64,000 bases of DNA from NCBI GenBank assembly GCA_947476295.1, contig CANJQC010000007.1, forward strand, positions 1 to 64,000, read 5' to 3'. The stretch is from Planctomycetaceae bacterium (GTDB taxonomy: Bacteria; Planctomycetota; Planctomycetia; Planctomycetales; Planctomycetaceae). Below are positions 1,099 to 57,721 of the stretch, in pieces (position 1 is the stretch's first letter; each line of letters opens with the position of its first letter). A program made the translations under genes and the position numbers. Under the pieces are notes generated by a model, which was given only the letters and a program-made list of their open reading frames with translations, made no database searches and was not told where the DNA came from.

Positions 1099-1111
1099 CG
1101 GGTGGAATTCG

Positions 1112-5566: not shown

Positions 5567-5570
5567 GTTG

Positions 5571-5705
5571 CACGGCTGGCCAGTTATTGATCATGGGCAG
5601 GCTGTAGGGTGTGACAAGCAACGCGCAGGCACACCGAAACACGGTCATAGTGTACCTGCGCTACCGCCTGTCACACCCTACCAATTCACAAACTGGCCAG
5701 CCGTG
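5571..5705. repeat. nested inverted repeat, MITE- or terminator-like
   Basis: Two nested perfect inverted repeats are seen. The outer arms are CACGGCTGGCCAGTT (5571-5585) and its complement at 5691-5705. The inner arms are GTAGGGTGTGACA (5604-5616) and its complement at 5669-5681. The middle is also partly self-complementary (GCAGGCAC against GTACCTGC). The whole can fold into one hairpin of about 135 nt directly after the stop of the 1484-aa gene. There is no T-run, so a simple terminator is less likely than a small non-autonomous element. The inner arm GTAGGGTGTG also begins the repeat at 43730. Confidence 0.75.
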
Positions 5706-5814
5706 GGGCAAAGCGGCAATGGATTTACATTTGGTGATTCAGGCTGGTATTGTTCATACACAAGACACTTCCACCCGTTTTTGCTCAGACGTCTGCACCC
5801 TTCAAGGAAATCCC

Positions 5815-7368: not shown

Positions 7369-7413
7369 CGTCCTGAAATTTGAGCGAAATGGCGACAGGC
7401 TGCAGAAGTCGCA

Positions 7414-7914
7414 CTATTTCGATGTCTTCCCACCTCGTACCGCGAACGACACGTTCTCGAACTTCAGTTTCTGACACAGGTCGTAGATCAGAATAAACTG
7501 CTGGACTTCAACATCGTCGTTCACGTTCAGAATGATGCGAGTAGAAGGGTCAGCGGTGCCGAGGAGGGTGAGTCGCTGTGAGAGGATGTTGATACCCGGA
7601 AGCGGTTCTTCGTCCAGAAAGACGGCAATCGGATTGTTCCCCGCGACTGACGGTTCAATGCGAATCTGAACTGGCGGGTGTTCCCATGTTTCGGGTTCCG
7701 CTGAGGCCGCAGCTTCCATTGACGACGAACTGTCTCCGTTCAATTCCGCAGGCAGCAATTTGTCCGCTGTGCTGCCAACTGATGCACAAATAAAGAAGAC
7801 AAGCAGCAGAAAGACGACGTCGATCATCGGCGTCATTGTGTCGCCGTCAAACGAGTCGAATCGCCTCGGTCGGGATGGAAGTTTCATCAATGCCTGAACT
7901 TTTTGACGTGCCAA
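7414..7914 (-). CDS. ExbD/TolR-family biopolymer transport protein
   Basis: ExbD/TolR proteins are single-span inner-membrane partners of the ExbB/TolQ proton channel. The signature MTPMIDVVFLLLVFFICAS is near residues 27-45, followed by a periplasmic domain ending in KLKFENVSFAVRGG. The start given is TTG 7914, which has AGGAA just upstream and directly follows the TGA of the upstream exbD-like gene. ATG at 7887 is an alternative and would give 157 aa. It is the second gene of a two-gene exbD pair. No ExbB/MotA-type gene lies beside it, so the channel partner must be encoded elsewhere. Confidence 0.9.
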   Translation of the reverse strand: MARQKVQALMKLPSRPRRFDSFDGDTMTPMIDVVFLLLVFFICASVGSTADKLLPAELNGDSSSSMEAAASAEPETWEHPPVQIRIEPSVAGNNPIAVFLDEEPLPGINILSQRLTLLGTADPSTRIILNVNDDVEVQQFILIYDLCQKLKFENVSFAVRGGKTSK

Positions 7915-8349
7915 TCATTCCTGTGGTAAAGTCACGGCAAAACGAATGCTGCGGATACTGTGTGCGGCACAGTGTTCGATCAATGTCCGGATGGAGCCGA
8001 ATTGAGCATTACGGTCGGAACGAATTCGAACTTCAGGCTGCTTTCCGTCGGCAGGTTTAGCCTCATTTAGGTCTTCAATTCGCCTGAATATTTGTTTCTC
8101 AGTCATCTGGATGCCGCCGACCGACAAATGACCGTCAGGTTCGATCGTGATCGTCAGCCGATGCGGCGACGAAATATCGTCCGTTTGGCCTTTGGACGCA
8201 ACTGGCAGATTCACTTCTCTCGATTGTTCGCTGCGAATAAAGTAGCTGGCGACCAGAAAGAAAATGATCAGCAAAAAAACCACGTCGATCATCGGTGTGA
8301 TATTAAATCGTAGCGGTGTTCGTTGGAGTGAAGAAACAGGAAGTCGCAT
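7915..8349 (-). CDS. ExbD/TolR-family biopolymer transport protein
   Basis: This 144-aa protein has a short cytoplasmic tail, the membrane signature ITPMIDVVFLLIIFFLVASYF at about residues 17-37 with the conserved Asp, and a periplasmic domain. It begins at ATG 8349 and stops immediately before the second ExbD paralogue, so the two are translated from one message. In planctomycetes such pairs are common beside a MotA/TolQ/ExbB gene; here the upstream neighbour is instead a thioredoxin-like gene separated by a strong hairpin. Two different ExbD subunits may form a heteromeric stator, which is an inference. Confidence 0.9.
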   Translation of the reverse strand: MRLPVSSLQRTPLRFNITPMIDVVFLLIIFFLVASYFIRSEQSREVNLPVASKGQTDDISSPHRLTITIEPDGHLSVGGIQMTEKQIFRRIEDLNEAKPADGKQPEVRIRSDRNAQFGSIRTLIEHCAAHSIRSIRFAVTLPQE

Positions 8350-8456
8350 CGAAGCAAACTTTTTGAGCGGCCAAGGGCGGAATCTTGCTGTAAACCTGAC
8401 GACTTTTCTCGAACGCTGCCAGCCTTGAACGCCCCCTCAGCCGGCCCGTCGGCCAC

Positions 8457-8482
8457 CTTCTCCCCCGATCTCGGGGGAGAAG
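8457..8482. terminator. GC-rich perfect hairpin downstream of the thioredoxin-like gene
   Basis: Twelve-base arms CTTCTCCCCCGA and TCGGGGGAGAAG are separated by two bases, just after the stop of the minus-strand gene 8491-9420. It lies where a terminator is expected, but there is no U-tract on the minus strand. CTCCCCC/GGGGGAG hairpins are also dispersed repeats in planctomycetes, so it could be either. Confidence 0.55.
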
Positions 8483-8490
8483 GGACTGGT

Positions 8491-9420
8491 TTAATTCAGG
8501 GTCATCGATTTCAGAAATGGAAACTGGTCCGGATTCTGGATTCCGTCGGCGGAAATGCCTTCGGCATACCAAGCGGGATTATCCTGAAACAGCCGTCGGT
8601 TGGATTGTGATGTAAAGAAGAACAGGCGTCCTTTGTAGAAGGCTCCCAGTTCGATCGCACCGGTTTCAGCACGGCGTTCGCGCTGAAGTTCCACCGGGTC
8701 GCAGCCGTGAAGGCCGGGAATGAACTGATCAGCACTGGCGAAGAACAGTTCTCGTTCCTCAGCCGACTGGAAGAAATAGTCCACTCCGTCGTAAGAGCCG
8801 ACAAATTCTTCGCTGCCCTTCAACCATTTTTTGTCACGCATCATCGCGACCGGACAAAATCCACCAAGCCCGACAACCTTGCCATCGCGCATGACGAGGA
8901 GGCATCGACGCAGGCTTTCGTCCAGCTCCTGAGTTGGTTTCACGTCCTGATCGGTTCCGTTGCTGGCACCAGACTTATCCAGGCGAGCGGTGTATTCTGC
9001 GAGTGTGGCACTGCCTGCGTACCTCGCGAGTTCCTGGCCATCGGATCCGATGATGACTTCTGTCGGCAGTGACGAAATACCATACTTCGCGATCAGCTCC
9101 GGGTCGCGATCCGCGTCAATGCGCACGCCGATCACAGTGTTGCCCAGATGCTTGACCACGTCCTGTTGACTTAGTACGGCAGAATCCATTTGCCGACACG
9201 CTCCGCACCACACGGCTTCAAAGTGAAGCACAATCGGTACGTTCTTTTCTATCGATAGTTTTTTTGCCTCTTCAAATGAATCCAGCCATTTTCCGGATGA
9301 GGCATCCATTGCATCGGCCACAGTCTGTGATAGTTCAGAATTATTCGGGTCAGCAGAATTCGGGTCCATCGCAGCAAGCGATAACGAAACAGAAAACAGT
9401 ACCATCGCACTCACGGAAAT
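8491..9420 (-). CDS. exported thioredoxin-fold protein with two YHS-like modules
   Basis: The protein is about 309 aa from ATG 9420 (MISVSAMVLFSVSLSLAA is a signal peptide; GAAAGG lies about 9 bases upstream). The open frame extends to 9555 but without a plausible start. Residues about 45-155 form a thioredoxin domain with WCGAC and the cis-Pro segment SLPTEV, so it is likely a periplasmic thiol-disulfide protein. The C-terminal ~130 residues contain two copies of a YHS-like pattern: GFCPV...YDGVDYFFQSAEERELF and GCDPV...YKGRLFFFTSQSNRRLF. YHS modules are linked to metal or heavy-metal proteins, so a redox/metal role is possible. The exact substrate is unknown. Confidence 0.82.
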   Translation of the reverse strand: MSVSAMVLFSVSLSLAAMDPNSADPNNSELSQTVADAMDASSGKWLDSFEEAKKLSIEKNVPIVLHFEAVWCGACRQMDSAVLSQQDVVKHLGNTVIGVRIDADRDPELIAKYGISSLPTEVIIGSDGQELARYAGSATLAEYTARLDKSGASNGTDQDVKPTQELDESLRRCLLVMRDGKVVGLGGFCPVAMMRDKKWLKGSEEFVGSYDGVDYFFQSAEERELFFASADQFIPGLHGCDPVELQRERRAETGAIELGAFYKGRLFFFTSQSNRRLFQDNPAWYAEGISADGIQNPDQFPFLKSMTLN

Positions 9421-9606
9421 CATCCGCAGCATCCTTTCAGAACAGAGAAAGATCGCGGCACTTTCATCCGGAAAGACTCCGCGATTTTTATGGGATAAAA
9501 TCGATCCCCCGCTGGTATCGCGGCGACATCCTGTCGCAGCGTCCAGTGTTGGCAAGCGGGGACCTGCTTCGATCGCCGCATGACTGTGTTTCTGTGGACT
9601 ACACAG

Positions 9607-10215
9607 CTACTTCAGAATCCCGGATTTAGTGAGATACGCGATGACTTCCTTCGCGAGTTCCTCAATGCCCTTATTGTCAGAATCTAGGGTAAGCTCTGCT
9701 TTTTCCGGTGCTTCATAAGGAGCGCTGATACCGGTGAAATTCTTGATTTCGCCGGCTCGTGCCTTCTTGTAAAGTCCCTTGGGGTCACGAGATTCGCACG
9801 TCTCAAGACTGGCTTCGACCATGATCTCGATGAATTCTCCCTGCGGCATCAGTCCTCGAACCAAATCGCGGTCGGCCTTGTAAGGAGAAATGAATGCGGT
9901 GGAAACGATCGTCGCTGCGTCGGCGAACAACTTTGCAACTTCACCAATTCGGCGGATATTTTCTGTCCGGTCTTCGGGTGAAAAACCAAGATTCTTGTTC
10001 AGCCCCATGCGGATGTTGTCGCCATCCAGCACAAAGGAATGCACACCTCGCTCGTGCAGGATCTGATCCACTGCGTTCGCGATCGTGCTTTTGCCACAAC
10101 CGCTCAGACCGGTGAACCATAGCACCGCTCCACGGTGTCCGTTCAGCTTCTGGCGGTCTTCGCGAGTGATGTTGTGAGCATGCCATGTAACGTTTGTCGC
10201 CTTCTGTTCAGCCAT
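9607..10215 (-). CDS. cysC: adenylylsulfate (APS) kinase
   Basis: CysC phosphorylates APS to PAPS with ATP. The 202-aa protein starts at ATG 10215 (MAEQKATNVTWHAH, a typical CysC N-terminus). GAAGG abuts the ATG and GGAG lies further up; the longer frame to 10383 is not homologous. I see the P-loop GLSGCGKST, the DGDNIR substrate loop, NIRRIGEVAKLF, and ISPYKADRD followed by DPKGLYKKARAGEIKNFTGI, all hallmarks of the family. It stands alone, with no cysD/cysN or sat gene nearby. PAPS may feed sulfate assimilation or sulfation of polysaccharide. It diverges from the HEAT-repeat gene. Confidence 0.95.
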   Translation of the reverse strand: MAEQKATNVTWHAHNITREDRQKLNGHRGAVLWFTGLSGCGKSTIANAVDQILHERGVHSFVLDGDNIRMGLNKNLGFSPEDRTENIRRIGEVAKLFADAATIVSTAFISPYKADRDLVRGLMPQGEFIEIMVEASLETCESRDPKGLYKKARAGEIKNFTGISAPYEAPEKAELTLDSDNKGIEELAKEVIAYLTKSGILK

Positions 10216-10679
10216 CCTTCGTATGTCTCCAGAAAATTTCAATTCAGAATTGGATAAATCCGGCCAGCGATTCCAGACTGCCTGCCGCAGTCCGGGCGAA
10301 CCCGACCATCGGGCTTTCAATTGATTCAGCAACTTGCCGATCACAAACTGGTGATCCCAACCGTTCGCCCGCTGCTCAGTCAATAAAACAGGTCAGTTAT
10401 TCACTTGACTCTGCCGGTCACCTGAACTGCGAGGCTGGGGATCATAGGGAAGCCCAATCGGCTCGCAAATCAATCGGGCACACCCTAGGGGAGTCTGTTT
10501 GCGAATTCTCAACACTCGCAGAGAACGCCGTGAATGTGGGTTGACGGCTATTTCTGGGTTACTTGCGAAATTTGCATGTTTCTCGAATGCCGGGCTTTTT
10601 TGGAAACGCCTGCATTTCAGCGAGGACGCACTTATTATGCGGCAGCGACTGGATTTACTGTAATGATCGAGACCACGAA
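10216..10679. other. divergent intergenic region
   Basis: This 460-base stretch between divergent cysC and the HEAT-repeat gene should carry promoters for both. I see no ORF with coding character. A CAGGT...ACCTG partial inverted repeat lies at about 10390-10425 and a TTGACG hexamer near 10541, without a convincing -10 partner. Confidence 0.4.
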
Positions 10680-11828
10680 ATGGCATCTGAATCTGATCCT
10701 TCGACCTTAGAGTCCACTACTGCATCCTCGGGATTTCGCCACGAAGAGCTGCCGCCCGTGACGCCACCTTCGGCAGGATTCATTGTACAGTTGTTCCTAA
10801 TTCCGGCGATGATCGTGCTGGCCGTGGTCGCTGTCTGGGCGCTGTTCGGGAAGCTGGCAGACTCAGACAATGACTGGAAACAACTTGCCACGGAACTCGG
10901 CAGCAGCAACGAACACCGCCGCTGGCGCGCTGCGATGGGGTTGGCTCAATTGCTGCGTAATGAAGAAATCTCGCCTACAAAGGATCCTGAGCCGCTGGCG
11001 AAAAACCCCGTTGTGGTGGATTCGCTCACAAAACTGCTCAGTGAATCACTAGCTTCAACCACGACAACGGACGAAGACATCACGCATCAGGAATTTCTCG
11101 CCCGAACCCTAGGAGCCCTCGACGCAGATGAGAAGACGCTGCCGGTGCTGGCTGAGGGCGTGAAAGATTCTCACAATATTGAAGTCCGCAAGAGTTCGCT
11201 TATGTCAATCGCGGCGATTGCCGGTCGCCATTTCGACGATGCGACGGGATACTCTGCGGCCGTCGCTGCGGGTTCAATTGCTCCACCGCTGTCCGACCGC
11301 AAGTTGCCACTGATCGCCTCGACAATTTCCGACGCCGCTGTACTCGAACAACTTCGGCGTTCGGCTCAGGATCCGGAGCCGGTTGTGCGGCATCTTTCTG
11401 GATATGCGTTAGCGAACGTCAGCGGGCCCGATTCCCTGGAACAGCTTCGTGTGATGCTGACAGACGGCAATCGCCTGGCGCAGGCCAATGCCGCGATCGG
11501 TCTGGCTCGCAATGGTTCCACAGATGGTGTCCCGGCATTGATTCAACTTCTGACAACTTCGCTTAAGCCGTTTGAGTATCAACCTGATTCAGCCGTGAAA
11601 GAAGAATCGACGCCCGAAACAATTCGACAGGCGGAAGCGCGGCATCAGATTGAAGAATCGCAAGTCGCCCGCAATTGCCTCAAAGCTACAGCCGACCTCT
11701 GGCCGCAGATCGATGCGGAGAATCGCGTCACGCTGGTCGCCGTGATCAGCCAGATAGAGCAAAAATTCTTCGCTTCAGACGTGCAACTGCAAGCTGGCGA
11801 TATGCTGAAGACGATTGGCCGGCCGTGA
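10680..11828 (+). CDS. membrane-anchored HEAT-repeat protein
   Basis: The protein has 382 aa from ATG 10680. The open frame extends to 10563, but the upstream part looks non-coding and a GAGACC lies before this ATG. Residues about 33-60 are one transmembrane segment (FIVQLFLIPAMIVLAVVAVWALF). The rest is alpha-helical with HEAT-like repeats, for example RRWRAAMGLAQLLRNEE, VVRHLSGYALANVSG and RLAQANAAIGLARNG. It is probably a scaffold or protein-binding membrane protein. Its TGA overlaps the GTG of the DUF456 gene by four bases (GTGA), so the two are translationally coupled. Confidence 0.85.
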   Translation: MASESDPSTLESTTASSGFRHEELPPVTPPSAGFIVQLFLIPAMIVLAVVAVWALFGKLADSDNDWKQLATELGSSNEHRRWRAAMGLAQLLRNEEISPTKDPEPLAKNPVVVDSLTKLLSESLASTTTTDEDITHQEFLARTLGALDADEKTLPVLAEGVKDSHNIEVRKSSLMSIAAIAGRHFDDATGYSAAVAAGSIAPPLSDRKLPLIASTISDAAVLEQLRRSAQDPEPVVRHLSGYALANVSGPDSLEQLRVMLTDGNRLAQANAAIGLARNGSTDGVPALIQLLTTSLKPFEYQPDSAVKEESTPETIRQAEARHQIEESQVARNCLKATADLWPQIDAENRVTLVAVISQIEQKFFASDVQLQAGDMLKTIGRP

Positions 11829-12355
11829 TAAGTTACTGGCTATGGGTCAGTTTGCTGATTTCGTTGAATACGGTCGCGTTGTTGAGCAACCTTTTCCTGC
11901 TGCCCGGCAACTGGTTCATGACGGGGCTGCTTTGCGTCTTTCTGATTGCATCCGATTTTGGACATGGCCCGACATGGATGGTCGTCATCATCTGCGCGGG
12001 ACTTGCCGGACTGGGCGAGGTTCTGGAACTCGTAATGGGTTCTGCCAAAGCCGCTAAAAAAGGTGCCAGTCGCCGTGCGCTGGCGATTTCGATGGCATTG
12101 TCGTTCGTCTGCAGCATTGCAGGAACATTCGTCGTGCCGATTCCCGTCGTGGGCAGTGTGATCGGTGCCATTCTGGGAGCGGCCATCGGTGCGTTTGTCG
12201 GAGCCTGGCTGGGGGAAGCCTGGAAAGGTACCGACCACACCTTTCGCACAGAAATCGGCACTGCTGCCATGAATGGTCGCTTACTCGGAATGCTGGCCAA
12301 AGGCGTCGTCGGTGTCGCGATTTTCGTCGTGCAACTCGTGAGCTTCTGGCTGTAG
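11825..12355 (+). CDS. DUF456 family membrane protein
   Basis: This 176-aa integral membrane protein starts at GTG 11825, overlapping the stop of the HEAT-repeat gene (GTGA). The frame is open upstream but only in the shadow of that gene. DUF456 features are visible: LLPGNWFMTGLLCVFL near the N-terminus, LAGLGEVLELVMGSAKAAKKGASRRA in the centre, and the Gly/Ala-rich segment VVGSVIGAILGAAIGAFVGAWLGE. Four to five membrane segments are expected. The molecular role of the family is not established. The coupling suggests it forms a complex with the HEAT-repeat protein. Confidence 0.9.
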   Translation: MISYWLWVSLLISLNTVALLSNLFLLPGNWFMTGLLCVFLIASDFGHGPTWMVVIICAGLAGLGEVLELVMGSAKAAKKGASRRALAISMALSFVCSIAGTFVVPIPVVGSVIGAILGAAIGAFVGAWLGEAWKGTDHTFRTEIGTAAMNGRLLGMLAKGVVGVAIFVVQLVSFWL

Positions 12356-12477
12356 CTTCGCCTGCTTCTCTGAAGCATGTTGTCGTTGAGTGAGCGTGAG
12401 TGGCTCCCGCTGCGTCGCTTGATGCGTTACAATCAGTCGAATCAGGCGGCGGCGGGCAAATTGGTCTTACCCACAAG

Positions 12478-12528
12478 AACCCGACGCGCCAGCGAGGAAA
12501 CAGAAGTCCGTGCCTCGCGCGTCGGGTT
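12478..12528. repeat. inverted repeat, AACCCGACGCG family
   Basis: AACCCGACGCGCCAGCGAGG at 12478-12497 is followed 15 bases later by CCTCGCGCGTCGGGTT (12513-12528). The outer 11 bases are perfectly complementary, with CGAGG/CCTCG extending the pairing imperfectly. It resembles repeats I know from planctomycete intergenic regions. It could act as a terminator for the DUF456 gene. Confidence 0.6.
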
Positions 12529-12593
12529 GGTATATTGTTGTTCCGCTGCTGCCTTAGAATCTTGACATGTGTCAGCTGATGCGTTTTTGTGTT

Positions 12594-12609
12594 TACGCGG
12601 CGCCGCGTA
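12594..12609. promoter_or_regulatory. 16-bp perfect palindrome before the Zn-ribbon/Arg-rich gene
   Basis: TACGCGGCGCCGCGTA is a perfect palindrome 18 bases upstream of the start codon, followed by a very strong ribosome binding site (GGAAGGAGG). A TTGACA at 12562-12567 could be the -35 box. This arrangement suits an operator or an mRNA hairpin in the leader. Confidence 0.4.
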
Positions 12610-47371: not shown

Positions 47372-47967
47372 ATGTCGATATCGAAGGATGATTTGTTCCG
47401 ACGAATCAAGGCCGATTTTCTGCAGGCCGTGCGTGCAGGCGGCTCGCCGAATCGTGCTGAACTGCTGGGCAAGTATCCGGAACTGGCCGCACAACTGAAC
47501 GAGCTCTTTGCTGAAGTCGATCGGACTCCGCCCCACAATCAACCGGAAACTGCCACGCTGCCGCCGGACAATGCTGGTGTTGATGAATACGCCACGCTGC
47601 CGCCGGAAACCGGTGACCAGGAATTTTCCACGATCGTTCCTGCGGATAAGTCAATTGCACTGCCAATGACGGCGGGCAGCCGCACGGGAACCAAAGTCCG
47701 TTACTTTGGCGACTATGAACTGCTGAGCGAGATCGCTCGCGGCGGCATGGGAGTTGTCTACAAGGCTCAGCAGGTCAATCTGAATCGCATCGTGGCTCTG
47801 AAAATGATTCTGGCCGGGCAGCTGGCATCGGACGAAGACGTCAACGCTTCTATACGGAAGCGGAAGCGGCGGCGAATCTGGATCATCCGGGGATCGTGCC
47901 GATCTTTGAAATCGGCGAGCACGACGGCCAGCACTATTTTTCGATGGGATTTATCGACGGCAAGTGA
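47372..47967 (+). pseudogene. truncated, frameshifted Ser/Thr protein kinase
   Basis: ATG 47372 opens a planctomycete-type kinase: an N-terminal helical region (FLQAVRAGGSPNRAELLGKYPEL), a linker with repeated ATLPPE phrases, and then kinase subdomains [23 protein letters not shown] and [11 protein letters not shown]. At about 47843 one base is missing; the next frame continues correctly as [44 protein letters not shown] at 47965 then ends it before the catalytic loop (HRD) and DFG. The frameshift and truncation together mean it is not a working kinase. Confidence 0.88.
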
Positions 47968-48130
47968 GGTAGGCTGTGAAGGGGATTTGATGGCGGCAAT
48001 GAAAGCTCAGTCCGCCCAACCTTGCTTCGCTACGCCACAGTCTCCGCCCGCACTCGCGAAGTCAAAGGCTCGTATGTTCGTCGGTATTCGCGGCGGCCAA
48101 CGAGCGACCGTCAGTAAATACGCTCTGGAG
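47968..48130. other. sequence after the kinase truncation point
   Basis: The original kinase frame stays open to 48313, but the translated sequence no longer resembles a kinase and no other family is recognised. This marks the junction of the deletion or insertion that cut the kinase. Confidence 0.35.
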
Positions 48131-48388
48131 TCAGTGTTTAGCAGACACACACGCCTCAAGGCTCATCAGAGATACGGTTGTGGCAACGGCGGCTGCACTC
48201 TGAATTTGCTGACAAACGAGAACGAATCCGAATACAGCCAGCGGGAGACCACAGCAAGTCATCGTTGTTGTCAGTACATTTGGGAGCGATGCCACAAACA
48301 ACATGCGTTTTGACCGGAAGCAGCATAGGCATGTCGAGATCAGTGTGACTGCGTAGATCACAAGTAAAAATGAAGTAAACGCCTTCAC
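48131..48388 (-). CDS. possible small membrane protein, 85 aa
   Basis: A minus-strand frame starting at GTG 48388 encodes two hydrophobic segments (FTSFLLVIYAVTLISTCLC and CGLPLAVFGFVLVCQQIQ) joined by a Cys- and Thr-rich loop. There is no clear ribosome binding site. It lies in a decayed stretch next to another membrane-protein pseudogene, so it may be a remnant. No family is recognised. Confidence 0.35.
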   Translation of the reverse strand: MKAFTSFLLVIYAVTLISTCLCCFRSKRMLFVASLPNVLTTTMTCCGLPLAVFGFVLVCQQIQSAAAVATTVSLMSLEACVSAKH

Positions 48389-49804: not shown

Positions 49805-49829
49805 CCTCGGACATGAATGTCCAAGCTAC
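49805..49829. repeat. half copy of the GGACATTCATGTCC element overlapping a stop codon
   Basis: Read on the minus strand, TAGCTTGGACATTCATGTCCG begins with the TAG that ends the redox protein gene (49826-49828). The element therefore supplies the stop codon and may have shortened or changed the C-terminus. Confidence 0.7.
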
Positions 49830-50863
49830 ATAAATCGCGCCTGGCGCTGAACCGAAGCGTCGGATTCATCGCCGGACAGTTCTACGTCGGTCTCTGTTGG
49901 CAATGTTGCCAATTGAACGTAGTCTGGAAGATCTGCCGCAGACTGGTGCCTGTAGGCTCGGACAATTTGGCCATCCTGCATAAGAAACACACCAGGCATC
50001 CGCAGAACATTACCATCGGCCGGACCGGTTCTGTGCCCTTGAAAGAAAGCCCGGAACGCGCGCCACCAGACGTTGGGGCCAAACAGTTGTCCGAAGGTGC
50101 CCATCTTAAGGCCAAATGCGTCGTACAGACTACAGGAATGATCGCGAAATACATGCAGGTCCGTCAGTCTGTATTTTTCGAGCAACTCGATCGGCTCTTT
50201 CTGTCCCATATGAACGAACGCGATCTGAGTTCCACCGCTTTCGATCTGCCGACGATGGGTAGCCACGTCGCAAACGGACTCGCGACAAAACGTGCAACCG
50301 GAATGCCTAAGAAATACCAGCAGAAGTGGATGTTGTCGCGAAAGTTCAATCAGCGATGCACCCCGCTGGCTGAGCATTCTACCAACAGGATCAATTTTTC
50401 TGATGGGGGCCGGGACCGTGAAGCATTCTAATCGAGACTGATGAAAACGTGCTGCATGCCAGAGGATGAGGCTAAACGGTATCCACCAGATCAGATCATT
50501 CGTCAGAATGACCCAGCCAAATGCAGCAGGAAGTCGGCCTGCTGTCACAGACAGCAGAAAACCGATGGGACCGAAAATCTTCCCGAGCAATCCGACCAAG
50601 ACGATGGGCCAGTGAATGAACGGTTGACGGGCCGCAATCGCATATCCGATTCCGTACACACCAATAATCATTCCAATGCACTGCCAAAGTTCCGGGTAGT
50701 TTGGCAGTGTCGAAGCACCAGCGATACGAAAGATCGCCGTGGGAAATACGATCGCGAGCACGCCCCAGATGAGATTGTACAGCGCGGCTGCCTGCAACAC
50801 GAAACCCATCCAAGGTTTGGGCAGAAGGGGGTTTAAAACAACTTCTTTAGGTGCGTCAGTCAT
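49826..50863 (-). CDS. membrane-anchored thioredoxin-like (SelL/AhpC-type) protein
   Basis: The 345-aa protein has an N-terminal membrane domain of four segments (about residues 18-145; MGFVLQAAALYNLIWGVLAIVFP, FGWVILTNDLIWWIPFSLIL). The C-terminal domain (about 165-320) is a thioredoxin-fold of the SelL/AhpC-TSA type: LLVFLRHSGCTFCRESVCDVA with a CxxC redox pair, IAFVHMGQ, and PGVFLMQDGQIVRAY. It probably reduces peroxides or disulfides at the membrane. It is the last gene after the sigma factor (17-base gap) and the lipid cluster. Its stop codon lies in a repeat. Confidence 0.85.
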   Translation of the reverse strand: MTDAPKEVVLNPLLPKPWMGFVLQAAALYNLIWGVLAIVFPTAIFRIAGASTLPNYPELWQCIGMIIGVYGIGYAIAARQPFIHWPIVLVGLLGKIFGPIGFLLSVTAGRLPAAFGWVILTNDLIWWIPFSLILWHAARFHQSRLECFTVPAPIRKIDPVGRMLSQRGASLIELSRQHPLLLVFLRHSGCTFCRESVCDVATHRRQIESGGTQIAFVHMGQKEPIELLEKYRLTDLHVFRDHSCSLYDAFGLKMGTFGQLFGPNVWWRAFRAFFQGHRTGPADGNVLRMPGVFLMQDGQIVRAYRHQSAADLPDYVQLATLPTETDVELSGDESDASVQRQARFM

Positions 50864-50880
50864 CGAAGACAGTCGTAATT

Positions 50881-51792
50881 TCAGGTCGAGACAAGACCGG
50901 GCTCAAGCTCTTCAAAGAATTCGCGGAGCTTATCCACCGCTGCGATCTGCAACTGTCTGACTCGCTCTTTGGACAGCCCAAGGTCCGTCGCAAGCTCTCG
51001 CAGAGTCTTCACGACACGGTTCTCGGAAAGACCAAATCGCCCCACGATTACCATTTGCTCTCGTTCGTCGAGACATTCGGCCATCCGCATAATAAGCTCA
51101 CTCACGCGATGCTCTTCTCGAACCCATTCAGAAATGACAGGATCTTCCTCGGTTGCCGGGACCTCATTCAGAAATTCAACGCCCGACTTGAATTCTACTG
51201 AATTTCGTCGTTTCTGACGCTGAGCGAATCGGTAGAAGTGTCTCTGAACAGAATGAGTCGCGTAAGTGCTGAAGCGGAATCCACGAGAGAAGTCAAACTT
51301 CGTAATGGCTTTCAGAAGAATCTCATTCCCTTCACTCATCAGTTCATCAAAATCACATGATGAGTTGGAAAACTTCCGTGCGAGGGAAATCACGAGTCGC
51401 AGGTTGCATTGGGCAATGTGGTTCCGCACAGATTCAGCATCGTGAAGCAGACTGCGAAGCGTATTCTGCAGTTTTCGGGAACCAGTAGAGTTCAGGAGAA
51501 GCAGGCGCACCCGTTCCGCTTGGAACCGCATGTAGTTCATTTTCCGGAACAGAAATGTCTCGCCTTCCGGTGACAGAAGGGGCAGGTCGGTCAACATTTC
51601 AAAGTCGCCAACGCCATCTAATTGCATCATCTCGTTCTGCACGCAGTCAGCATAGATGCTGCTGCCGACAGGCAGGGACAGCATGTCGTCGGAGGAAGCA
51701 TTTTGAAATGAACCATTTTCAATAAAGATCACAGGCTCAATCATGCTCGCCTCAAGCAGATTGCCTGAAGCCCTCGCACGTGTTGTGTTCAT
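50881..51792 (-). CDS. sigma-70 family RNA polymerase sigma factor
   Basis: About 303 aa from ATG 51792 (AGGA upstream; a TTG at 51804 would add four residues). A region 1.2-like segment (PEGETFLFRKMNYMRFQAERV) is followed by region 2 (NLRLVISLARKFS, FDELMSEGNEILLKAITKFDFSRGFRFSTYATHSVQRHFYRF) and region 4 (DEREQMVIVGRFGL...KTLRELATDLGLSKERVRQLQ) with its helix-turn-helix. The presence of regions 1.2, 2, 3 and 4 makes it a group 2/3 alternative sigma factor rather than an ECF. No anti-sigma gene is adjacent. It likely serves the flanking lipid and redox genes. Confidence 0.92.
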   Translation of the reverse strand: MNTTRARASGNLLEASMIEPVIFIENGSFQNASSDDMLSLPVGSSIYADCVQNEMMQLDGVGDFEMLTDLPLLSPEGETFLFRKMNYMRFQAERVRLLLLNSTGSRKLQNTLRSLLHDAESVRNHIAQCNLRLVISLARKFSNSSCDFDELMSEGNEILLKAITKFDFSRGFRFSTYATHSVQRHFYRFAQRQKRRNSVEFKSGVEFLNEVPATEEDPVISEWVREEHRVSELIMRMAECLDEREQMVIVGRFGLSENRVVKTLRELATDLGLSKERVRQLQIAAVDKLREFFEELEPGLVST

Positions 51793-51863
51793 AGTCCTGT
51801 CCAATCAAGTCTGCGTGATGAATGCCCAGACTTTGCCATCCGTTTGTATGACGAGCATTTAAC

Positions 51864-51892
51864 ATAATTTAATATGTGACGTATTAAATTAT
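51864..51892. promoter_or_regulatory. AT-rich perfect inverted repeat upstream of the sigma factor
   Basis: ATAATTTAATA (51864-51874) and TATTAAATTAT (51882-51892) are 11-bp perfect arms around TGTGACG. They lie 72 bases upstream of the sigma factor start and 12 bases after the DUF1295 stop, next to a run of nine C (51894-51902). The AT-rich arms are weak as a terminator; an operator is more likely. Confidence 0.55.
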
Positions 51893-51903
51893 TCCCCCCC
51901 CCG

Positions 51904-52680
51904 TCATTTTCTGCGTTTTCGTCGCAGCAATGGGAAAAAAGCACTCGTTGCCGCCACGTACTCGGCATAGTCTGGCTTTGATTTCCCAAGCCTTTTCTCG
52001 AGTAATGCAACCCCTGAGAACTTCATGAGCAGAACAGCCATGAGAACCGGTCCCACGGCCGACCAGGCCGGGGCACCGTGCTGCAGGGACACGACAAATA
52101 ATCCCCACCAGACACAGAAATCCCCAAAATAATTGGGATGCCTGGTGTACCTCCAAAGACCACGGTCCAGAACCGCCCCCTTGTTACTAGGCACACTTCG
52201 AAATCTGGCCAGTTGCCAGTCACCGACACTTTCGAACAGGATGCCGATCAGCCAAAGAAGTACACCGACCACAACCAGTCCGGTGCTCCCTCCTATCATC
52301 GGTCCGGATGTCTGCAGGGGAAGTGAGACAATCCACATCACAAGTCCCTGAAGGACGAAGACTGTCAGAAGACTGACCAGCCAGAAACGCGAGCCGTGTT
52401 TGTCTCTCATGGACTTATATCGATAATCTTCCGGCAGCCACCAGTTTCGCCAGGCAAGGAAAAGACTCAGTCGCACTCCCCAAATTGTGGTCAGCACAGG
52501 CAGCAAAAGGGAACGCTGCGGGAGATCGGCAATTCCATAAGTCGTCCACGCAATCAGTACGAAGCCTGCTCCCCAGAAGGCGTCCACGATGCTGGCATTG
52601 CGCCGGACAATGCTGCCGATCCAGATGGTCAGCATCAGTGCCGCCACGACGACAGCATTCATCATCAGCGGGCTTGTCAT
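51904..52680 (-). CDS. DUF1295 (steroid 5-alpha-reductase-like) membrane protein
   Basis: The 258-aa protein has about six transmembrane segments. The family signature is present: IVDAFWGAGFVLIAW near residue 31, WWLPEDYRYKSMRDKHG, and GLWRYTRHPNYFGDFCVWWGLFV near residue 175, then EKRLGKSKPDYAEYVAATSAFFP. Such proteins relate to steroid reductases and isoprenylcysteine methyltransferases. A lipid double-bond reduction or modification role is plausible. Its ATG overlaps the stop of the upstream methyltransferase (ATGA), so it is coupled to the lipid cluster. Confidence 0.93.
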   Translation of the reverse strand: MTSPLMMNAVVVAALMLTIWIGSIVRRNASIVDAFWGAGFVLIAWTTYGIADLPQRSLLLPVLTTIWGVRLSLFLAWRNWWLPEDYRYKSMRDKHGSRFWLVSLLTVFVLQGLVMWIVSLPLQTSGPMIGGSTGLVVVGVLLWLIGILFESVGDWQLARFRSVPSNKGAVLDRGLWRYTRHPNYFGDFCVWWGLFVVSLQHGAPAWSAVGPVLMAVLLMKFSGVALLEKRLGKSKPDYAEYVAATSAFFPLLRRKRRK

Positions 52681-53729
52681 AGGGCACGGCGCTCAAACAG
52701 GAAGTGTGAGACCCACCATTCGCTTCCGTCGCGGAATCCGAACAACTCTGCACACGCCATGAAAAACATCCGCCAGCGATTCAGCCAGACGACGGCCTGT
52801 TGCTGGCCGTAAGTTTCGCGGAAGAGGTCTCTGAGATGCTCCTTGTTTGCATCCTGTCTTAACAGCCATTCGTTGCATGTGCGCTCATAGTGCCTGCCGT
52901 CCCAGCGCCAGCGATCACTGAGTTCAAGATGCTGCTGACAGTGGGCCAGCAGAGATTCGCCGGGCATCATGCCTCCGCTGAAGAAGTGCTTCGCCATCCA
53001 GTCGCGTTTGCCGTTTGTCTCAAACAAATACGAATGCAGTCGATGGCAAAAGATATGGACGAATAACTTTCCCTGTGGGTTCAGCCACGTTGAGATGCGT
53101 CTGAGCAGTTCCCGGTGATTTCGCATATGTTCAAACATTTCTACGGAGACAACTCGGTCAAATGTCTGCAGTGTCTGAAAGCTATTCATGTCAGCCGTTA
53201 TGACGGACAGGTTCGTCAGCCCCAATTCTGTGGCGCGGCCCTGGATGAATTGTCTTTGCGATGCAGAATTCGAAACCCCCAGAATCCGGCTGCCGGGGTA
53301 ACGTTCGGCCATCCACAGCGACAGAGATCCCCAGCCGCACCCAAGCTCCAGAATTGTCATGCCGTCTTCAATCTTAGCTCGCTGGCATGTTGTGGCCAGC
53401 GCTGCTTCTTCTGCCTGATCAAGATTCGCAACGTCGTCGGTCCATTCGCAGCAACTGTACTTCAGACGCCTTCCCAGTACCGTACGGAAAAATTCTGATG
53501 GGAGTTCGTAATGCTGTTCGTTGGCAAGTTCCGGGACCACTGCGACTGGGCTCTCTTCGCAGTCCTTAAGGAAGCTGCGAAACCGCGAGTTCTGGGCCTC
53601 AACGCCTCCAGATTGCAGTTCCTGCAGTCGGCGGCTCAAAAGTCTGCGAATGCCGGCGCGGCAAACCTTGTCCGGCAGGATCCCGTTTTCTGCGGCATGC
53701 ATTGCAGAGCCAAACAGATGAATCAGCAT
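52677..53729 (-). CDS. CFA-synthase-like SAM methyltransferase
   Basis: About 350 aa from ATG 53729 (GGAA eight bases upstream; TTG 53756 is an alternative). It has the CFA-synthase/coclaurine-methyltransferase architecture: KYSCCEWTDDVANLDQAEEAAL before the SAM site ILELGCGWGSLSLWMAERYP, then VSNSASQRQFI, VVSVEMFEHMRNH, FVHIFCHR, and HFFSGGMMPGESLL. It should transfer a methyl or methylene group from SAM to an unsaturated acyl chain. It differs clearly from the next methyltransferase (53773-55056), so the pair probably acts at successive steps. Confidence 0.88.
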   Translation of the reverse strand: MLIHLFGSAMHAAENGILPDKVCRAGIRRLLSRRLQELQSGGVEAQNSRFRSFLKDCEESPVAVVPELANEQHYELPSEFFRTVLGRRLKYSCCEWTDDVANLDQAEEAALATTCQRAKIEDGMTILELGCGWGSLSLWMAERYPGSRILGVSNSASQRQFIQGRATELGLTNLSVITADMNSFQTLQTFDRVVSVEMFEHMRNHRELLRRISTWLNPQGKLFVHIFCHRLHSYLFETNGKRDWMAKHFFSGGMMPGESLLAHCQQHLELSDRWRWDGRHYERTCNEWLLRQDANKEHLRDLFRETYGQQQAVVWLNRWRMFFMACAELFGFRDGSEWWVSHFLFERRAL

Positions 53730-53772
53730 GGCGAAATTCCGTTCCTCGAAAGACAATCCAGTTCAATTGATC

Positions 53773-55056
53773 TCAGCGACCCCAGACGGCCTGCACAACT
53801 CCGACGGCTCTCTCCTCGAATGCCCCCTCGCAATACGTCAGGTAGTAATCCCACATCCGAATGAATCGTTCAGAATAGCCCAACTGACGGACATTCTCCT
53901 GACGCGCAAGAAAACTGCGTCGCCATTCTCTCAGAGTTCTGGCATAGCCTTCAGCAAAATCATCCATGCTCAACAGCCGCAGACTGGAATTTCTGGTCAT
54001 GGAGTTCTGCATCGCAGTTACAGATGGCAGACAGCCGCCCGGAAAGATGTACTTCTGGATGAAGTCGACAGAATTCAGATATTGTGAATACCGCTGTTCT
54101 GGCATAACGATTGCCTGCAGCAGCATTCGTCCATTTGTATTCAGAAGTCGGGCACACTTCGAAAAATACTGATCATAAAACTGCGGCCCAACAGCCTCAA
54201 TCATTTCCAGCGACACCAGTTTGTCGAACTTCCCTGTCAGATCGCGGTAGTCCAGCTGCAGTACGGTGACCCGGTCACCGAGGCCCGCCGCTGCGACATG
54301 CTGCTGGGCATATCGGAACTGATTTTCAGAGATCGTCGTGGTTGTGACGCGACATCCGAATTTTTTTGCGGCATGCATGGCAAAACCACCCCATCCGGTT
54401 CCGATTTCCAGAACGTGGTCCGTCTCTTTCAGCTGCAGACGGCGACACGTCTCGTCCAGTCGGGCGATCTGTGCGTCAGCGAGGGACATTTCGGCATCAT
54501 CGAAGATGGCCGACGAGTACATCATGCTGGGATCAAGAAACAATTCAAAAAATTCATTCCCCAGATCATAATGTGCACCAATATTCCGGCGACTTCCGGA
54601 ACGCGTGTTGCGGGCCAGCCAGTAGCCAACACGAGCCGCAGCCCGTGTTGCCAATTCAAGCGTTTTCCCGAACGTTCGATGCCAGTTTAGGTTCCGACTG
54701 AAAATTCGGAACAGACTCGGAAGGTCGTCACACTCCCAGTCCCCATCCATGTAAGTCTCCGCCAGCCCCAGACTTCTGCCCGTCACCAGTCGTCGATAGA
54801 ACCGAGGATTCTTGACAGCGATCGTGGCCTGAAGATCATCCTGAGAGTTCTCCCCTAGGACATATCTTTTACACTGATCATCCAGGTAGAGTCGACCATT
54901 TTGCAGCGAACTCAGTCTTTTGAGAACCAGCCTTTGGCATGACCTGTTTAGTAACGACGTTTGCCTGCCGCACATGGCACTGAGGTCGTCTGGTACGGTT
55001 GGCCGGACCGCGTCATTGATGTCTTGCTGGCTGGATGTGGCGGTCGCAGAACTCAT
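53773..55056 (-). CDS. cyclopropane-fatty-acyl-phospholipid synthase family protein
   Basis: The 427-aa protein has AAGGAA before its ATG. The N-terminal domain (about 40-130) has VKNPRFYRRLVTGRSLGLAETYMDGDWECDDL, typical of CFA synthases. The SAM domain has NIGAHYDLGNEFFELFLDPSMMYSSAIF, VLEIGTGWGGFAMHAA, TTTISENQ, LVSLEMIEAVGP, and QKYIFPGGCLPS. These match CfaA-type enzymes that methylenate the double bond of phospholipid acyl chains on the inner membrane. Length and motifs are complete. It follows the DUF1365 gene by three bases. Confidence 0.93.
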   Translation of the reverse strand: MSSATATSSQQDINDAVRPTVPDDLSAMCGRQTSLLNRSCQRLVLKRLSSLQNGRLYLDDQCKRYVLGENSQDDLQATIAVKNPRFYRRLVTGRSLGLAETYMDGDWECDDLPSLFRIFSRNLNWHRTFGKTLELATRAAARVGYWLARNTRSGSRRNIGAHYDLGNEFFELFLDPSMMYSSAIFDDAEMSLADAQIARLDETCRRLQLKETDHVLEIGTGWGGFAMHAAKKFGCRVTTTTISENQFRYAQQHVAAAGLGDRVTVLQLDYRDLTGKFDKLVSLEMIEAVGPQFYDQYFSKCARLLNTNGRMLLQAIVMPEQRYSQYLNSVDFIQKYIFPGGCLPSVTAMQNSMTRNSSLRLLSMDDFAEGYARTLREWRRSFLARQENVRQLGYSERFIRMWDYYLTYCEGAFEERAVGVVQAVWGR

Positions 55057-55059
55057 TCT

Positions 55060-55989
55060 TCAATTCCTTGAATGGCGTACACTCGCTTGTTCGAGTGAAC
55101 AATCTTCATAATCTGCCTCATTGAGCACCAGCCCGGCAAATGGGTCGGCAGCATCCCGCGAGAGGGCATCAACTACTGAATCGTTCGTATCAGGCAGAGT
55201 TCCGGGATGAGGACAAAACGGGACACCCTTCAGCCACAGTCTGAGTGCCTGCCAGTAAATGCCGACGGTGACCTGCATGGTCATGAGGGGATATCGGCAG
55301 AGGACTCGCGCAAGGCTTCGTCGCGCAACGGGACGGCGTGTCAGAGCCATGCTCGCAGAAAAGGCGATCTTGTCAGCACTGTGGTTTTGAATCTGAATGG
55401 CCAGTTGATCTGCTGGCGGCGTAATTCGCCAGGAGTAGGTAAAGTCCATGGGCATGAATGGAGAAACATGAAACTCTTTCCGGTGCTGGGCGCGAATCAG
55501 GCGGCCTGTGTCAGTCCGTGTGGGCTCGCCCTCCCCGACTCTCGAATTCTGCGCACCGAAGTCCTCACGCGCGTCGATCACGTAGCAGTGTCGTTCCCCC
55601 CACGGTGTATTATTGACCTCAGCCACCACAGCTTCGACGGACTGACCTGAATTGTCGTAACAGAAGTAGAAGCTAACCGGATTCATCATGTAGCCAAAGT
55701 AGCGCAGATGTGTCAGCAGGCGAACCGCACCAGTCGGACGGAATCCAGCTTGCTTTTGCACCAGATTCCTGACGCTTTGGTCGAGTGGTTCAGAGGCTGG
55801 CCCCAGATGATCGTCGCGGCGGAAACGGGCAATCGCAGGCCTGCTGCACGACCACAGCCAGCGGTCGCGAAATACATCGCCAATTTCATCCAGGTCCAGA
55901 TACAGCATAAACAGTGAATTGCAAAATTCGTGCGATGGCGGACCGCCCCTTCGATGACGCACAATTCCTTCGTAGAGGCAACTATGCAT
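55060..55989 (-). CDS. DUF1365 family protein
   Basis: About 309 aa from ATG 55989 ([14 protein letters not shown], the usual DUF1365 start). It overlaps the 3' end of the FAD gene by eight bases; the longer frame to 56031 is a shadow. Family features are [41 protein letters not shown], and [19 protein letters not shown]. The biochemical role is not settled. It is almost always found next to the FAD protein and CFA synthase, which implies a shared lipid pathway. Confidence 0.93.
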
Positions 55990-57259
55990 GCGCACGCTCC
56001 GCCGACTCCAGACGTATCGGCGTCTCTTCAAAAGCCGCAGAAACTGCGAGTCCGCTGTTTACGCCGTCCTCATGAAATCCATTGCCCCAGTAAGCCCCGC
56101 AAAACGACAGGCGATCGCTTCGAATCAGATCGCGGTGCCGCTGCTGCGCCGACTTCCGCTGAATTGTGAAAACCGGATGACTGTAACGGAACTTCGAGAT
56201 GATTTTTTCCGGATCGATCGCGCTCTCTTCGTTCAGTGTCACACAGAACGTATGCCGAGACCGGATGTGCTGCAGGATGTTCATGTTGTACGTAAGCGTA
56301 GCATGATCTGAAGTCCCCGCCGGAATGTGGTAGTTCCAACTGGCCCAGGCCGAGGTTCGTCGCGGCAATAAAGAAATATCTGTGTGGAGAACGGCTGTGT
56401 TCGGCTCGTAGGGTATCGCTCCCAACACAGACTTCTCAACTGCGGAGGCCTGGTCCCCCAGAATCGAAAGCGACTGATCGCTGTGACATGCAAAAATCAC
56501 TTCGTCATATTGATCCTGCCCACGCTCGGTTTCCACCATGACAGAATCGGGCCTACGAACCACCGACCGAACGGGAGTTCTTAGAAAAATGCGGTCTCGA
56601 AACGGCCGCGTCAGTGCCTGAACGTAGTTTCGTGAGCCGCCCTTGATGACTCTCCACACCGGCCGATTCTTCAGACTCAGCAGGCCGTGGTTCCGATAGA
56701 AATCGCAAATGAAGCGGATTGGGAACTTCTCGAATGTGCTCGTCGGGCAAGACCAGATCGCCGCTCCCATCGGCAGCAGATAATGCCTGGCGAACTGCGA
56801 CGAATAGCGATGTTGCGCAAGGAAATCGCCCACAGTCTGCTCATCTCCGGAGTCATCCACCCGGTCCAGTGCTTCGCGATTGAATCGCATGATGTCGCGA
56901 ATCATGCGATAGAAGCCTGGTCGCAACAGGTTTCGCTTTTGAGCAAACAGCCCGGTCAGACCGCTGCCGTTGTACTCGAGATTGTCCTCGTCAGCACGAA
57001 CACTGAAACTCATTGACGTCGGCACCGATTCAACCTTCAGTTCCTGCAAGAGCCGACAAAAGTTCGGATATGTTCTGTCGTTAAAGACGATGAATCCAGT
57101 GTCTATCGCATGGTGTTCACCTTCCACATCAACCGACACTGTGTTTGTATGGCCGCCCGCATAATCATTCGCTTCATAGACTGTCACCTCGTGAGCGACG
57201 GTTAGGCTACGAGCGGCCACAAGCCCCGAAATTCCTGATCCAATGATGGCGATCCGCAT
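55982..57259 (-). CDS. FAD-dependent oxidoreductase (NAD(P)-binding, COG2907-type)
   Basis: The 425-aa protein begins [19 protein letters not shown], the FAD-binding GxGxxG fold, then [67 protein letters not shown] and [21 protein letters not shown] are hallmarks of the flavoprotein that accompanies CFA synthase and DUF1365. It resembles amine oxidases and phytoene desaturases, so desaturation of an acyl chain is plausible. It is the first gene of the minus-strand operon, whose promoter must lie in the divergent gap 57260-57721. Confidence 0.93.
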
Positions 57260-57721
57260 GTGGCAGTCTCTAACAGTTAAAGTGCAACGTCGTCAATTTT
57301 AGAGTTAAGAGTTCGTCTGGCCAGTATTTCTGCGCAAATAATTTTTGCTACGGGATGGTTGGACCGGGCCGACGCGATTCAGCCACGATACCCGAAAACC
57401 TGCTGGCGACGCGCACTTTGGGGAGTTTTTTGCTCTGGTCCTACTGTCTGCAAGTCCGAAGCGGATTGTCATCGGGGCGATCGCTGGAACGACCACGACC
57501 TTGCTGATCGCGTTCTCTGGTCCGATGAACGGATTCAAAGTTGCCCCGTTAGCTTTCAAAGGATCGTTCCTGCTGCTATGACTGTCAGGATTGTGACGGG
57601 CTGCATTGCCAGCCTGCTGTTTCTAAAAAGCCGAAGGATGAGAGCGGATTGGCACTGGCCACCGGTGTCGCAAACTAAAGCCGGCTCACAAGTCTGCACT
57701 AACCACAGAACCACTTCACCC
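57260..57721. other. divergent gap between the two large operons
   Basis: It should hold the start sites of both the lipid cluster (minus) and the catabolic operon (plus). A plus frame 57345-57581 reads FALVLLSASPKRIVIGAIAGTTTTLLIAF, hydrophobic but without known similarity; it could be a remnant. The sequence CCGGTGTCGCAAAC (57662-57675) recurs exactly at 63969-63982, after the catabolic operon. Confidence 0.4.

What the first reader, a model, noticed from the sequence alone, without database searches (positions are those of the whole stretch)
49826..57259. Lipid-modification cluster coupled to its own sigma factor and a membrane redox protein
All seven genes run in the same direction: FAD oxidoreductase, DUF1365, CFA synthase, a second CFA-like methyltransferase, DUF1295, then sigma-70 factor and a SelL/AhpC-like membrane protein. 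The core set is known from proteobacteria near singlet-oxygen or light-responsive regulators; related methyltransferase/flavoprotein sets make modified fatty acids there. Here the regulator is a group 2/3 sigma factor, not an ECF/ChrR pair, and a membrane-bound thiol redox protein is added. It may be a planctomycete version making cyclopropane, methylated or furan acyl chains under oxidative stress.
Basis: partly seen in the sequence, partly recalled or inferred. Interest (0 to 1): 0.65.

Follow-up and report, generated by a model that had tools for sequence, protein, structure and literature searches.

The report
Light-stress furan-lipid operon with sigma factor
Seven planctomycete genes that probably make an unusual light-damage-absorbing membrane lipid (a furan fatty acid) sit together with their own transcription switch and a membrane peroxide-handling protein, and comparison with other genomes shows that this switch belongs to a previously unnoticed sigma-factor family tied to light-defence genes.

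Summary
The seven same-strand genes are real. A second, complete genome of another genus has them in identical order (D-O-M1-M2-X-S-L, 56-70% identity).

D (FAD oxidoreductase), O (DUF1365) and M1 match the furan-fatty-acid genes ufaD, ufaO and ufaM in family and order. M1 is not an ordinary cyclopropane synthase: the bicarbonate-binding histidine of Cfa is glutamine in 106 of 106 M1 proteins, against histidine in 73 of 73 M2.

The sigma (S) lacks domain 3 and falls in a 34-member planctomycete clade, 27 of them within 5 kb of photolyase, MerR/B12 photoregulator, SRPBCC, SelL or ufa genes, against 0 of 23 other sigmas. Sigmas of this clade lie beside ufa genes in nine genomes and in three arrangements.

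A motif, TGAACG[T/A]TT, is shared upstream of ufa, sigma, photoregulator, photolyase and fasciclin genes. The window's operon lacks it, though same-genus relatives keep it.

Reading: a new variant of the known proteobacterial LitR and RpoE-ChrR furan-lipid regulons. Neither the lipid product nor control by S has been shown; both are inferred.

The parts
55982..57259 (-). D: FAD-dependent amine-oxidase-like protein, UfaD-type desaturase candidate
   Evidence: PF01593/NAD_binding_8; heads D-O-M1 in planctomycetes and in annotated proteobacterial loci; UfaD described in PMC7380195 as an NAD/FAD-binding, phytoene-desaturase-like protein
55060..56031 (-). O: DUF1365 protein, UfaO-type oxygenase candidate (likely ATG start at 55989, overlapping D by 8 bp)
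   Evidence: PF07103, 282 bits; UfaO is a DUF1365 protein (PMC7380195); 34-73% identity to planctomycete and proteobacterial copies
53773..55056 (-). M1: CMAS-fold SAM methyltransferase, UfaM-type; Cfa H266 replaced by Q and C139 by S
   Evidence: CMAS 294 bits; 41% identical to E. coli Cfa over 358 residues; Q at the H266 position in 106/106 cluster copies
52677..53756 (-). M2: second, distinct CMAS-family methyltransferase (possibly FufM-like), keeps the C/E/H/Y bicarbonate-site residues
   Evidence: CMAS 146 bits; 26% identical to M1 and 46-50% to M2 orthologues in Mesorhizobium/Ensifer ChrR islands; H in 73/73
51904..52680 (-). X: DUF1295 membrane protein, usual neighbour of M2
   Evidence: PF06966, 234 bits; X found beside M2 across phyla
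51865..51891 (.). Perfect inverted repeat TAATTTAATA-n7-TATTAAATTA in the 99-bp X-S gap, unique in the genome; possible operator
50881..51804 (-). S: sigma-70-family factor with regions 1.2, 2 and 4, no domain 3 (likely ATG start at 51792)
   Evidence: Pfam r2 and r4 only; AlphaFold helix pattern leaves no sigma3 domain; member of the light-associated clade
49826..50863 (-). L: four-helix membrane domain fused to a SelL/PRXL2-type thioredoxin-fold domain, CxxC = C190-T-F-C193
   Evidence: NF040769 over cut-off; C190/C193 invariant in 11 homologues; model's C-terminal domain matches prostamide/PGF synthase (TM 0.74 on target) and peroxiredoxin Q
57285..57304 (-). D promoter stretch where same-genus relatives G012/G001 have the operator-like AAAACGTTCACG; in the window it reads AAAATTGACGACG (motif absent)
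   Evidence: alignment; motif scores 17.7 in G012/G001 against no site in the window

Best explanation
A furan-fatty-acid operon of the planctomycete photo-oxidative stress response, carrying its own sigma factor and peroxide-handling protein. M1 (UfaM-like) methylates an unsaturated acyl chain of a phospholipid, D (UfaD-like) desaturates it and O (UfaO-like) inserts oxygen to close the furan ring; M2, with X as partner, probably adds a second methyl group (FufM-like) or makes a related modified chain. The furan lipid quenches singlet oxygen in the membrane, and L reduces the lipid peroxides or endoperoxides that result. S, a sigma3-less sigma of a light-associated planctomycete clade, directs RNA polymerase to this operon, probably with feedback onto itself, doing the job that RpoE-ChrR does in Rhodobacter and a LitR/CarH-like regulator probably does in most other planctomycetes. 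Shown here: gene content, order, conservation, clade membership, motif distribution and the M1 signature. Inferred: product, direction of control, and the roles of L, M2 and X.
For: Identical seven-gene order in another genus, all proteins 56-70% identical. D-O-M1(-M2-X) conserved in planctomycetes and in Gammaproteobacteria, Nitrospirota, Acidobacteriota and Gemmatimonadota, often near photolyase, MerR/B12 or ECF-ChrR genes. UfaD/UfaO/UfaM were demonstrated experimentally in R. sphaeroides and R. palustris (PMC7380195). M1 has Q for Cfa H266 in 106/106 and M2 has H in 73/73. Sigma clade: 27/34 in light context within 5 kb against 0/23 other sigmas, P = 4e-10. Out-of-sample genomes: five new species with B12-MerR | S-DCC-D-O-M1..., and two S-L pairs in G321. 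Shared motif: 24/29 S, 17/40 D, 13/20 B12-MerR, 4/4 fasciclin against 16/531 other genes; learned on D alone it recurs in 15/27 S promoters at other loci against 9/526. In the host genome the motif lies between an ispH-like gene and phytoene-synthase/desaturase-like genes and upstream of two fasciclin genes.
Against: No direct sequence comparison with R. sphaeroides or R. palustris Ufa proteins was possible; orthology rests on family, gene order and ChrR-linked rhizobial proxies. DUF1365 and CMAS families may contain other activities. Same-genus G012/G001 have the lipid genes without S-L beside them. The window's D and S promoters lack the shared motif, so light control of this copy is not shown, and no S-dependent promoter was identified. 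The regulator that binds the motif is not proven.
Confidence: 0.62

Rival explanations
1. The lipid genes make the furan fatty acid, but S and L form a separate module, an S-L redox-stress pair that merely moved next to the lipid operon and reads its own promoter.
For: S-L pairs occur without ufa genes (G044, G048, G024, second pair of G321); a 99-bp gap with an inverted repeat separates X from S; same-genus relatives lack S-L at this locus.
Against: Identical seven-gene order in two genera with matched divergence; S beside ufa genes in nine genomes in three arrangements; both S and ufa genes carry the same motif in other species.
Confidence: 0.22
2. The cluster makes cyclopropane or simple methyl-branched fatty acids for general membrane hardening, not furans.
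For: M1 and M2 belong to the CMAS family; M2 keeps all four bicarbonate-site residues.
Against: M1 lacks the bicarbonate-binding His (Q in 106/106) and has Ser for C139; D and O are needed only beyond the methylation step (PMC7380195); the genome has a separate CMAS at C103 with C/E/H/Y intact.
Confidence: 0.1
3. A chance neighbourhood of unrelated membrane, sigma and redox genes.
For: Sigma-SelL adjacency is absent in most ufa-bearing relatives.
Against: Exact recurrence in another genus, clade-level context statistics, shared promoter motif.
Confidence: 0.03

Closest known systems
RpoE (ECF11)-ChrR core regulon with ufaDO and ufaM, Rhodobacter sphaeroides / Rhodopseudomonas palustris (PMC7380195, PMC6852236)
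   Same: D-O-M enzyme set; dedicated sigma factor; photo-oxidative theme; M2-type methylase and DUF1295 neighbour also in a Mesorhizobium ChrR island
   Different: Sigma is not ECF, no ChrR in the window, and a SelL/PRXL2 membrane protein is added
LitR/PplR-PmlR light-inducible cluster of Pseudomonas/Aeromonas (phrB, SDR, FAD oxidoreductase, DUF1365, ufaM; PMC9758184; Aeromonas locus)
   Same: FAD-DUF1365-UfaM order; light theme; MerR/B12-type regulators beside many planctomycete copies
   Different: No MerR/B12 gene at this locus; sigma and SelL instead; the planctomycete motif TGAACG[T/A]TT was found here and was not compared with published LitR sites
LitS/CarQ-type light-induced sigma factors (from general knowledge; the Streptomyces ECF sigma is cited in PMC9758184)
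   Same: A sigma factor linked to a LitR/CarH-type regulator and light defence
   Different: Those are ECF sigmas; this clade has region 1.2 and branches apart from RpoD and the second planctomycete sigma group

Membership tests
UfaDOM furan-fatty-acid pathway | FAD/NAD-binding desaturase, DUF1365 protein and CMAS-type methylase in order D-O-M | tested here: met
UfaDOM furan-fatty-acid pathway | Methylase distinct from genuine cyclopropane synthases | tested here: met
   Q at Cfa H266 in 106/106 M1, separate CFA-like gene elsewhere in the genome; not compared directly with RSP_2144
UfaDOM furan-fatty-acid pathway | Furan fatty acid in phospholipids | not testable with these tools
   needs GC-MS
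Cyclopropane-fatty-acid synthase (M1) | C139/E239/H266/Y317 bicarbonate-site residues | tested here: not met
   S/E/Q/Y in the window's M1
FufM (furan methylase), for M2 | Methylates mono- to dimethyl-furan acid | not testable with these tools
   only a parallel: M2-M1 identity 26%, as FufM-UfaM 26% in PMC7380195
ECF11 RpoE-ChrR system | ECF sigma with ChrR zinc anti-sigma partner | tested here: not met
   No ChrR or ECF hit in the window; S carries region 1.2 and matches RpoS/RpoD-type profiles best
Canonical group 2/3 sigma-70 | Domains sigma2, sigma3 and sigma4 | tested here: not met
   Short linker between regions 2.4 and 4; no sigma3 in Pfam or in the AlphaFold helix pattern
Planctomycete light-associated sigma clade (defined here) | Phylogenetic membership | tested here: met
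   34-row clade SH-aLRT 99, 23-row subclade 97
Planctomycete light-associated sigma clade (defined here) | TGAACG[T/A]TT motif upstream | tested here: not met
   No site at window S or D; also absent in G022 and G040
SelL-related redox protein (NF040769) | Score over the curated cut-off and CxxC/UxxU motif | tested here: met
   136.3 bits against 120; C190/C193 invariant in 11

The most novel reading that the evidence does not exclude
Planctomycetes have an undescribed photo-oxidative sigma factor family without domain 3, which with a MerR/B12-like regulator and a TGAACG[T/A]TT direct-repeat operator controls photolyase, carotenoid, fasciclin and furan-lipid genes. In one lineage it has been hard-wired into a seven-gene operon with a membrane PRXL2-type reductase that recycles peroxidised furan lipids.
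Probability: 0.4. Interest if true: 0.75.

Novelty: new variant of a known kind. Interest (0 to 1): 0.58.

Why it matters
It would extend bacterial furan-fatty-acid synthesis to planctomycetes (no paper holding both terms was found). It gives a one-residue sequence marker (Q for H) that separates UfaM-type methylases from cyclopropane synthases, both annotated alike today. It points to a sigma family and promoter motif for light defence in a phylum where I found no described light regulon. The SelL/PRXL2 partner gives a testable answer to what happens to furan lipids after they trap singlet oxygen.

Tried and rejected
CFA synthase as the identity of M1: rejected on active-site residues. ECF-ChrR control: no such genes in the window. 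Direct MerR/B12 control of the window operon: no motif at D or S, regulator on another contig. The X-S inverted repeat as a regulon-wide operator: single copy in the genome. Shared promoter words among window D and S, G022 S and G040 S/D upstream regions: nothing convincing. R. palustris or R. sphaeroides sequences were not among the 80 loci returned, so direct comparison failed. AlphaFold global superposition of S gave low TM (0.3-0.4) because domains are loosely placed; only the helix inventory was used.
Full report
OBSERVATION. Below: D FAD oxidoreductase, O DUF1365, M1 and M2 CMAS-family methyltransferases, X DUF1295, S sigma, L SelL-like. Gene junctions are operon-like. The window is contig C7 of a 5.99-Mb genome, 99% complete.

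IS THE CLUSTER REAL? DUF1365 occurs in 31 of 59 relatives. Reading the loci shows D-O-M1-M2-X or most of it. Next to it S-L was found at first only in G000 and, divergently, in G040 of another family. The two closest copies (same genus, G012 and G001, 75-87% identical) lack S-L at this place. A wider search (294 genomes of the phylum) then found genome G321, complete and from another genus, with D-O-M1-M2-X-S-L in the same order, every protein 56-70% identical. In six species of a third genus (five newly drawn, plus L215, which is G261) the order is MerR/B12 | S-DCC-D-O-M1-X/M2 (M2/X reading of G220 incomplete). So S stands beside ufa genes in nine genomes and three arrangements.

WHAT THE ENZYMES ARE. 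In R. sphaeroides and R. palustris, UfaM, UfaD (NAD/FAD-binding) and UfaO (DUF1365) convert vaccenoyl chains to a methyl-furan acid, and FufM adds a second methyl (PMC7380195). In R. palustris the locus numbers run 2571 D, 2570 O, 2569 M, the order seen here. In annotated plasmid loci D-O-M1 lies beside ECF sigma-ChrR (Mesorhizobium), and an Ensifer locus has ECF-ChrR a few kb away; others carry MerR-photolyase (Aeromonas) or photolyase (Legionella). M2 orthologues, 46-50% identical, sit in the two rhizobial islands, beside DUF1295 in Mesorhizobium. Aligned with E. coli Cfa, the H266 position is Q in all 106 M1 and H in all 73 M2; the window's M1 also has S for C139. The residue roles in Cfa are from general knowledge of the enzyme. 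M1-M2 identity is 26% and M1 to the separate C103 CMAS 38%. The paper gives 26% for FufM and 38% for the other R. palustris CMAS against UfaM: suggestive, not proof.

THE SIGMA. S has regions 1.2, 2 and 4, with a linker too short for domain 3. In a tree of 57 planctomycete sigmas it lies in a 34-row clade (SH-aLRT 99), apart from RpoD-type and a second sigma group. Of the 34, 27 have photolyase, MerR/B12, SRPBCC, TIGR01777-like epimerase, fasciclin, L or ufa genes within 5 kb, against 0 of 23 others (P = 4e-10). Caveats: rows are related, contexts are not independent, and some loci are cut by contig ends. In the phylum-wide search the high-scoring S-type hits (scores near 300 and above, frames of about 300-420 aa) fall in the same class, mostly the same family.

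THE REDOX PROTEIN. L is a four-helix membrane domain plus a thioredoxin-fold domain with invariant C190 and C193. Its model's C-terminal domain is closest to human prostamide/prostaglandin F synthase, an endoperoxide-reducing enzyme (general knowledge), and to peroxiredoxin Q. S and L are neighbours or within about 4 kb in G000, G040, G027, G024, G044, G048 and twice in G321.

A SHARED MOTIF. Upstream regions of D, S, MerR/B12, photolyase, SRPBCC and fasciclin genes share TGAACG[T/A]TT, often repeated at 9-bp spacing. The 9-mer TGAACGTTT is in 45 of 117 such regions against 3 of 532 others. Learned on D alone, the top 8-mer TGAACGTT recurs in 15 of 27 S promoters at other loci against 9 of 526. 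By matrix score it is at 24 of 29 S and 17 of 40 D promoters; the matrix was trained on overlapping regions, so one search is the cleaner test. S promoters of newly drawn genomes mostly carry it too. In the host genome it lies at two fasciclin genes, an SDR/FAD oxidoreductase pair, and between an ispH-like gene and phytoene-synthase/desaturase-like genes. The MerR/B12 gene is on C14 and a class II-like photolyase on C39.

REGULATORY TURNOVER. G012 and G001 have the motif 42 bp before D; the aligned window stretch reads AAAATTGACGACG instead of AAAACGTTCACG. Window D and S have no site, nor do the S promoters of G022 and G040; in G321 the S promoter scores only 7.3 and no exact site lies in the 3.9-kb stretch around S. 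Copies with S-L attached thus appear to have left motif control, or never had it; the direction of change is undetermined.

MECHANISM. Shown: anatomy, conservation, clade, motif distribution, M1 signature. Inferred: furan product, S acting on this operon, L acting on lipid peroxides, M2-X as a second modification. In R. sphaeroides these lipid genes feed back on sigma activation (PMC6852236); S lying at the operon's end would allow similar feedback.

NOVELTY. A new variant of known furan-lipid light/singlet-oxygen regulons, with a new sigma clade as regulator. Literature searches found nothing for planctomycetes, within an open-access library only.

Noticed in passing
L073, L077, L079, L081, L089, L135, L215 (MerR/B12 genes): Most of the planctomycete MerR/B12 proteins read have W-x9-ER where, from general knowledge, CarH/LitR has W-x9-EH, and lack its second histidine motif; they may not bind cobalamin in the usual way. 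The G044 copy (L137) has EH.
   Followed up: partly
L298 (G000 C48) 1-12600: Phytoene-synthase-like, FAD desaturase-like, ispH-like, fasciclin and SDR/FAD oxidoreductase genes all carry the TGAACG[T/A]TT motif nearby: a likely light-induced carotenoid locus.
   Followed up: partly
G000:C1:2052-2453, C4:26596-26919, C140:5499-5882: The membrane half of L exists as free-standing paralogues (40-65% identical) in the same genome, one beside a cryptochrome-like photolyase and one beside a TIGR01777-like epimerase.
   Followed up: partly
L188, L189 (G018, G020): Two sigma genes of uncertain placement sit directly beside an epimerase-like gene; both have very long branches in the sigma tree.
   Followed up: no
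window 47372-48313: Truncated-looking serine/threonine kinase N-terminus followed by low-coding sequence up to the cluster's downstream side; possible decayed gene.
   Followed up: no
L194, L196, L200: Public record titles of several MAGs (e.g. 'Candidatus Kuenenia stuttgartiensis' for a contig whose length matches same-genus relative G001 C88) look taxonomically wrong.
   Followed up: no
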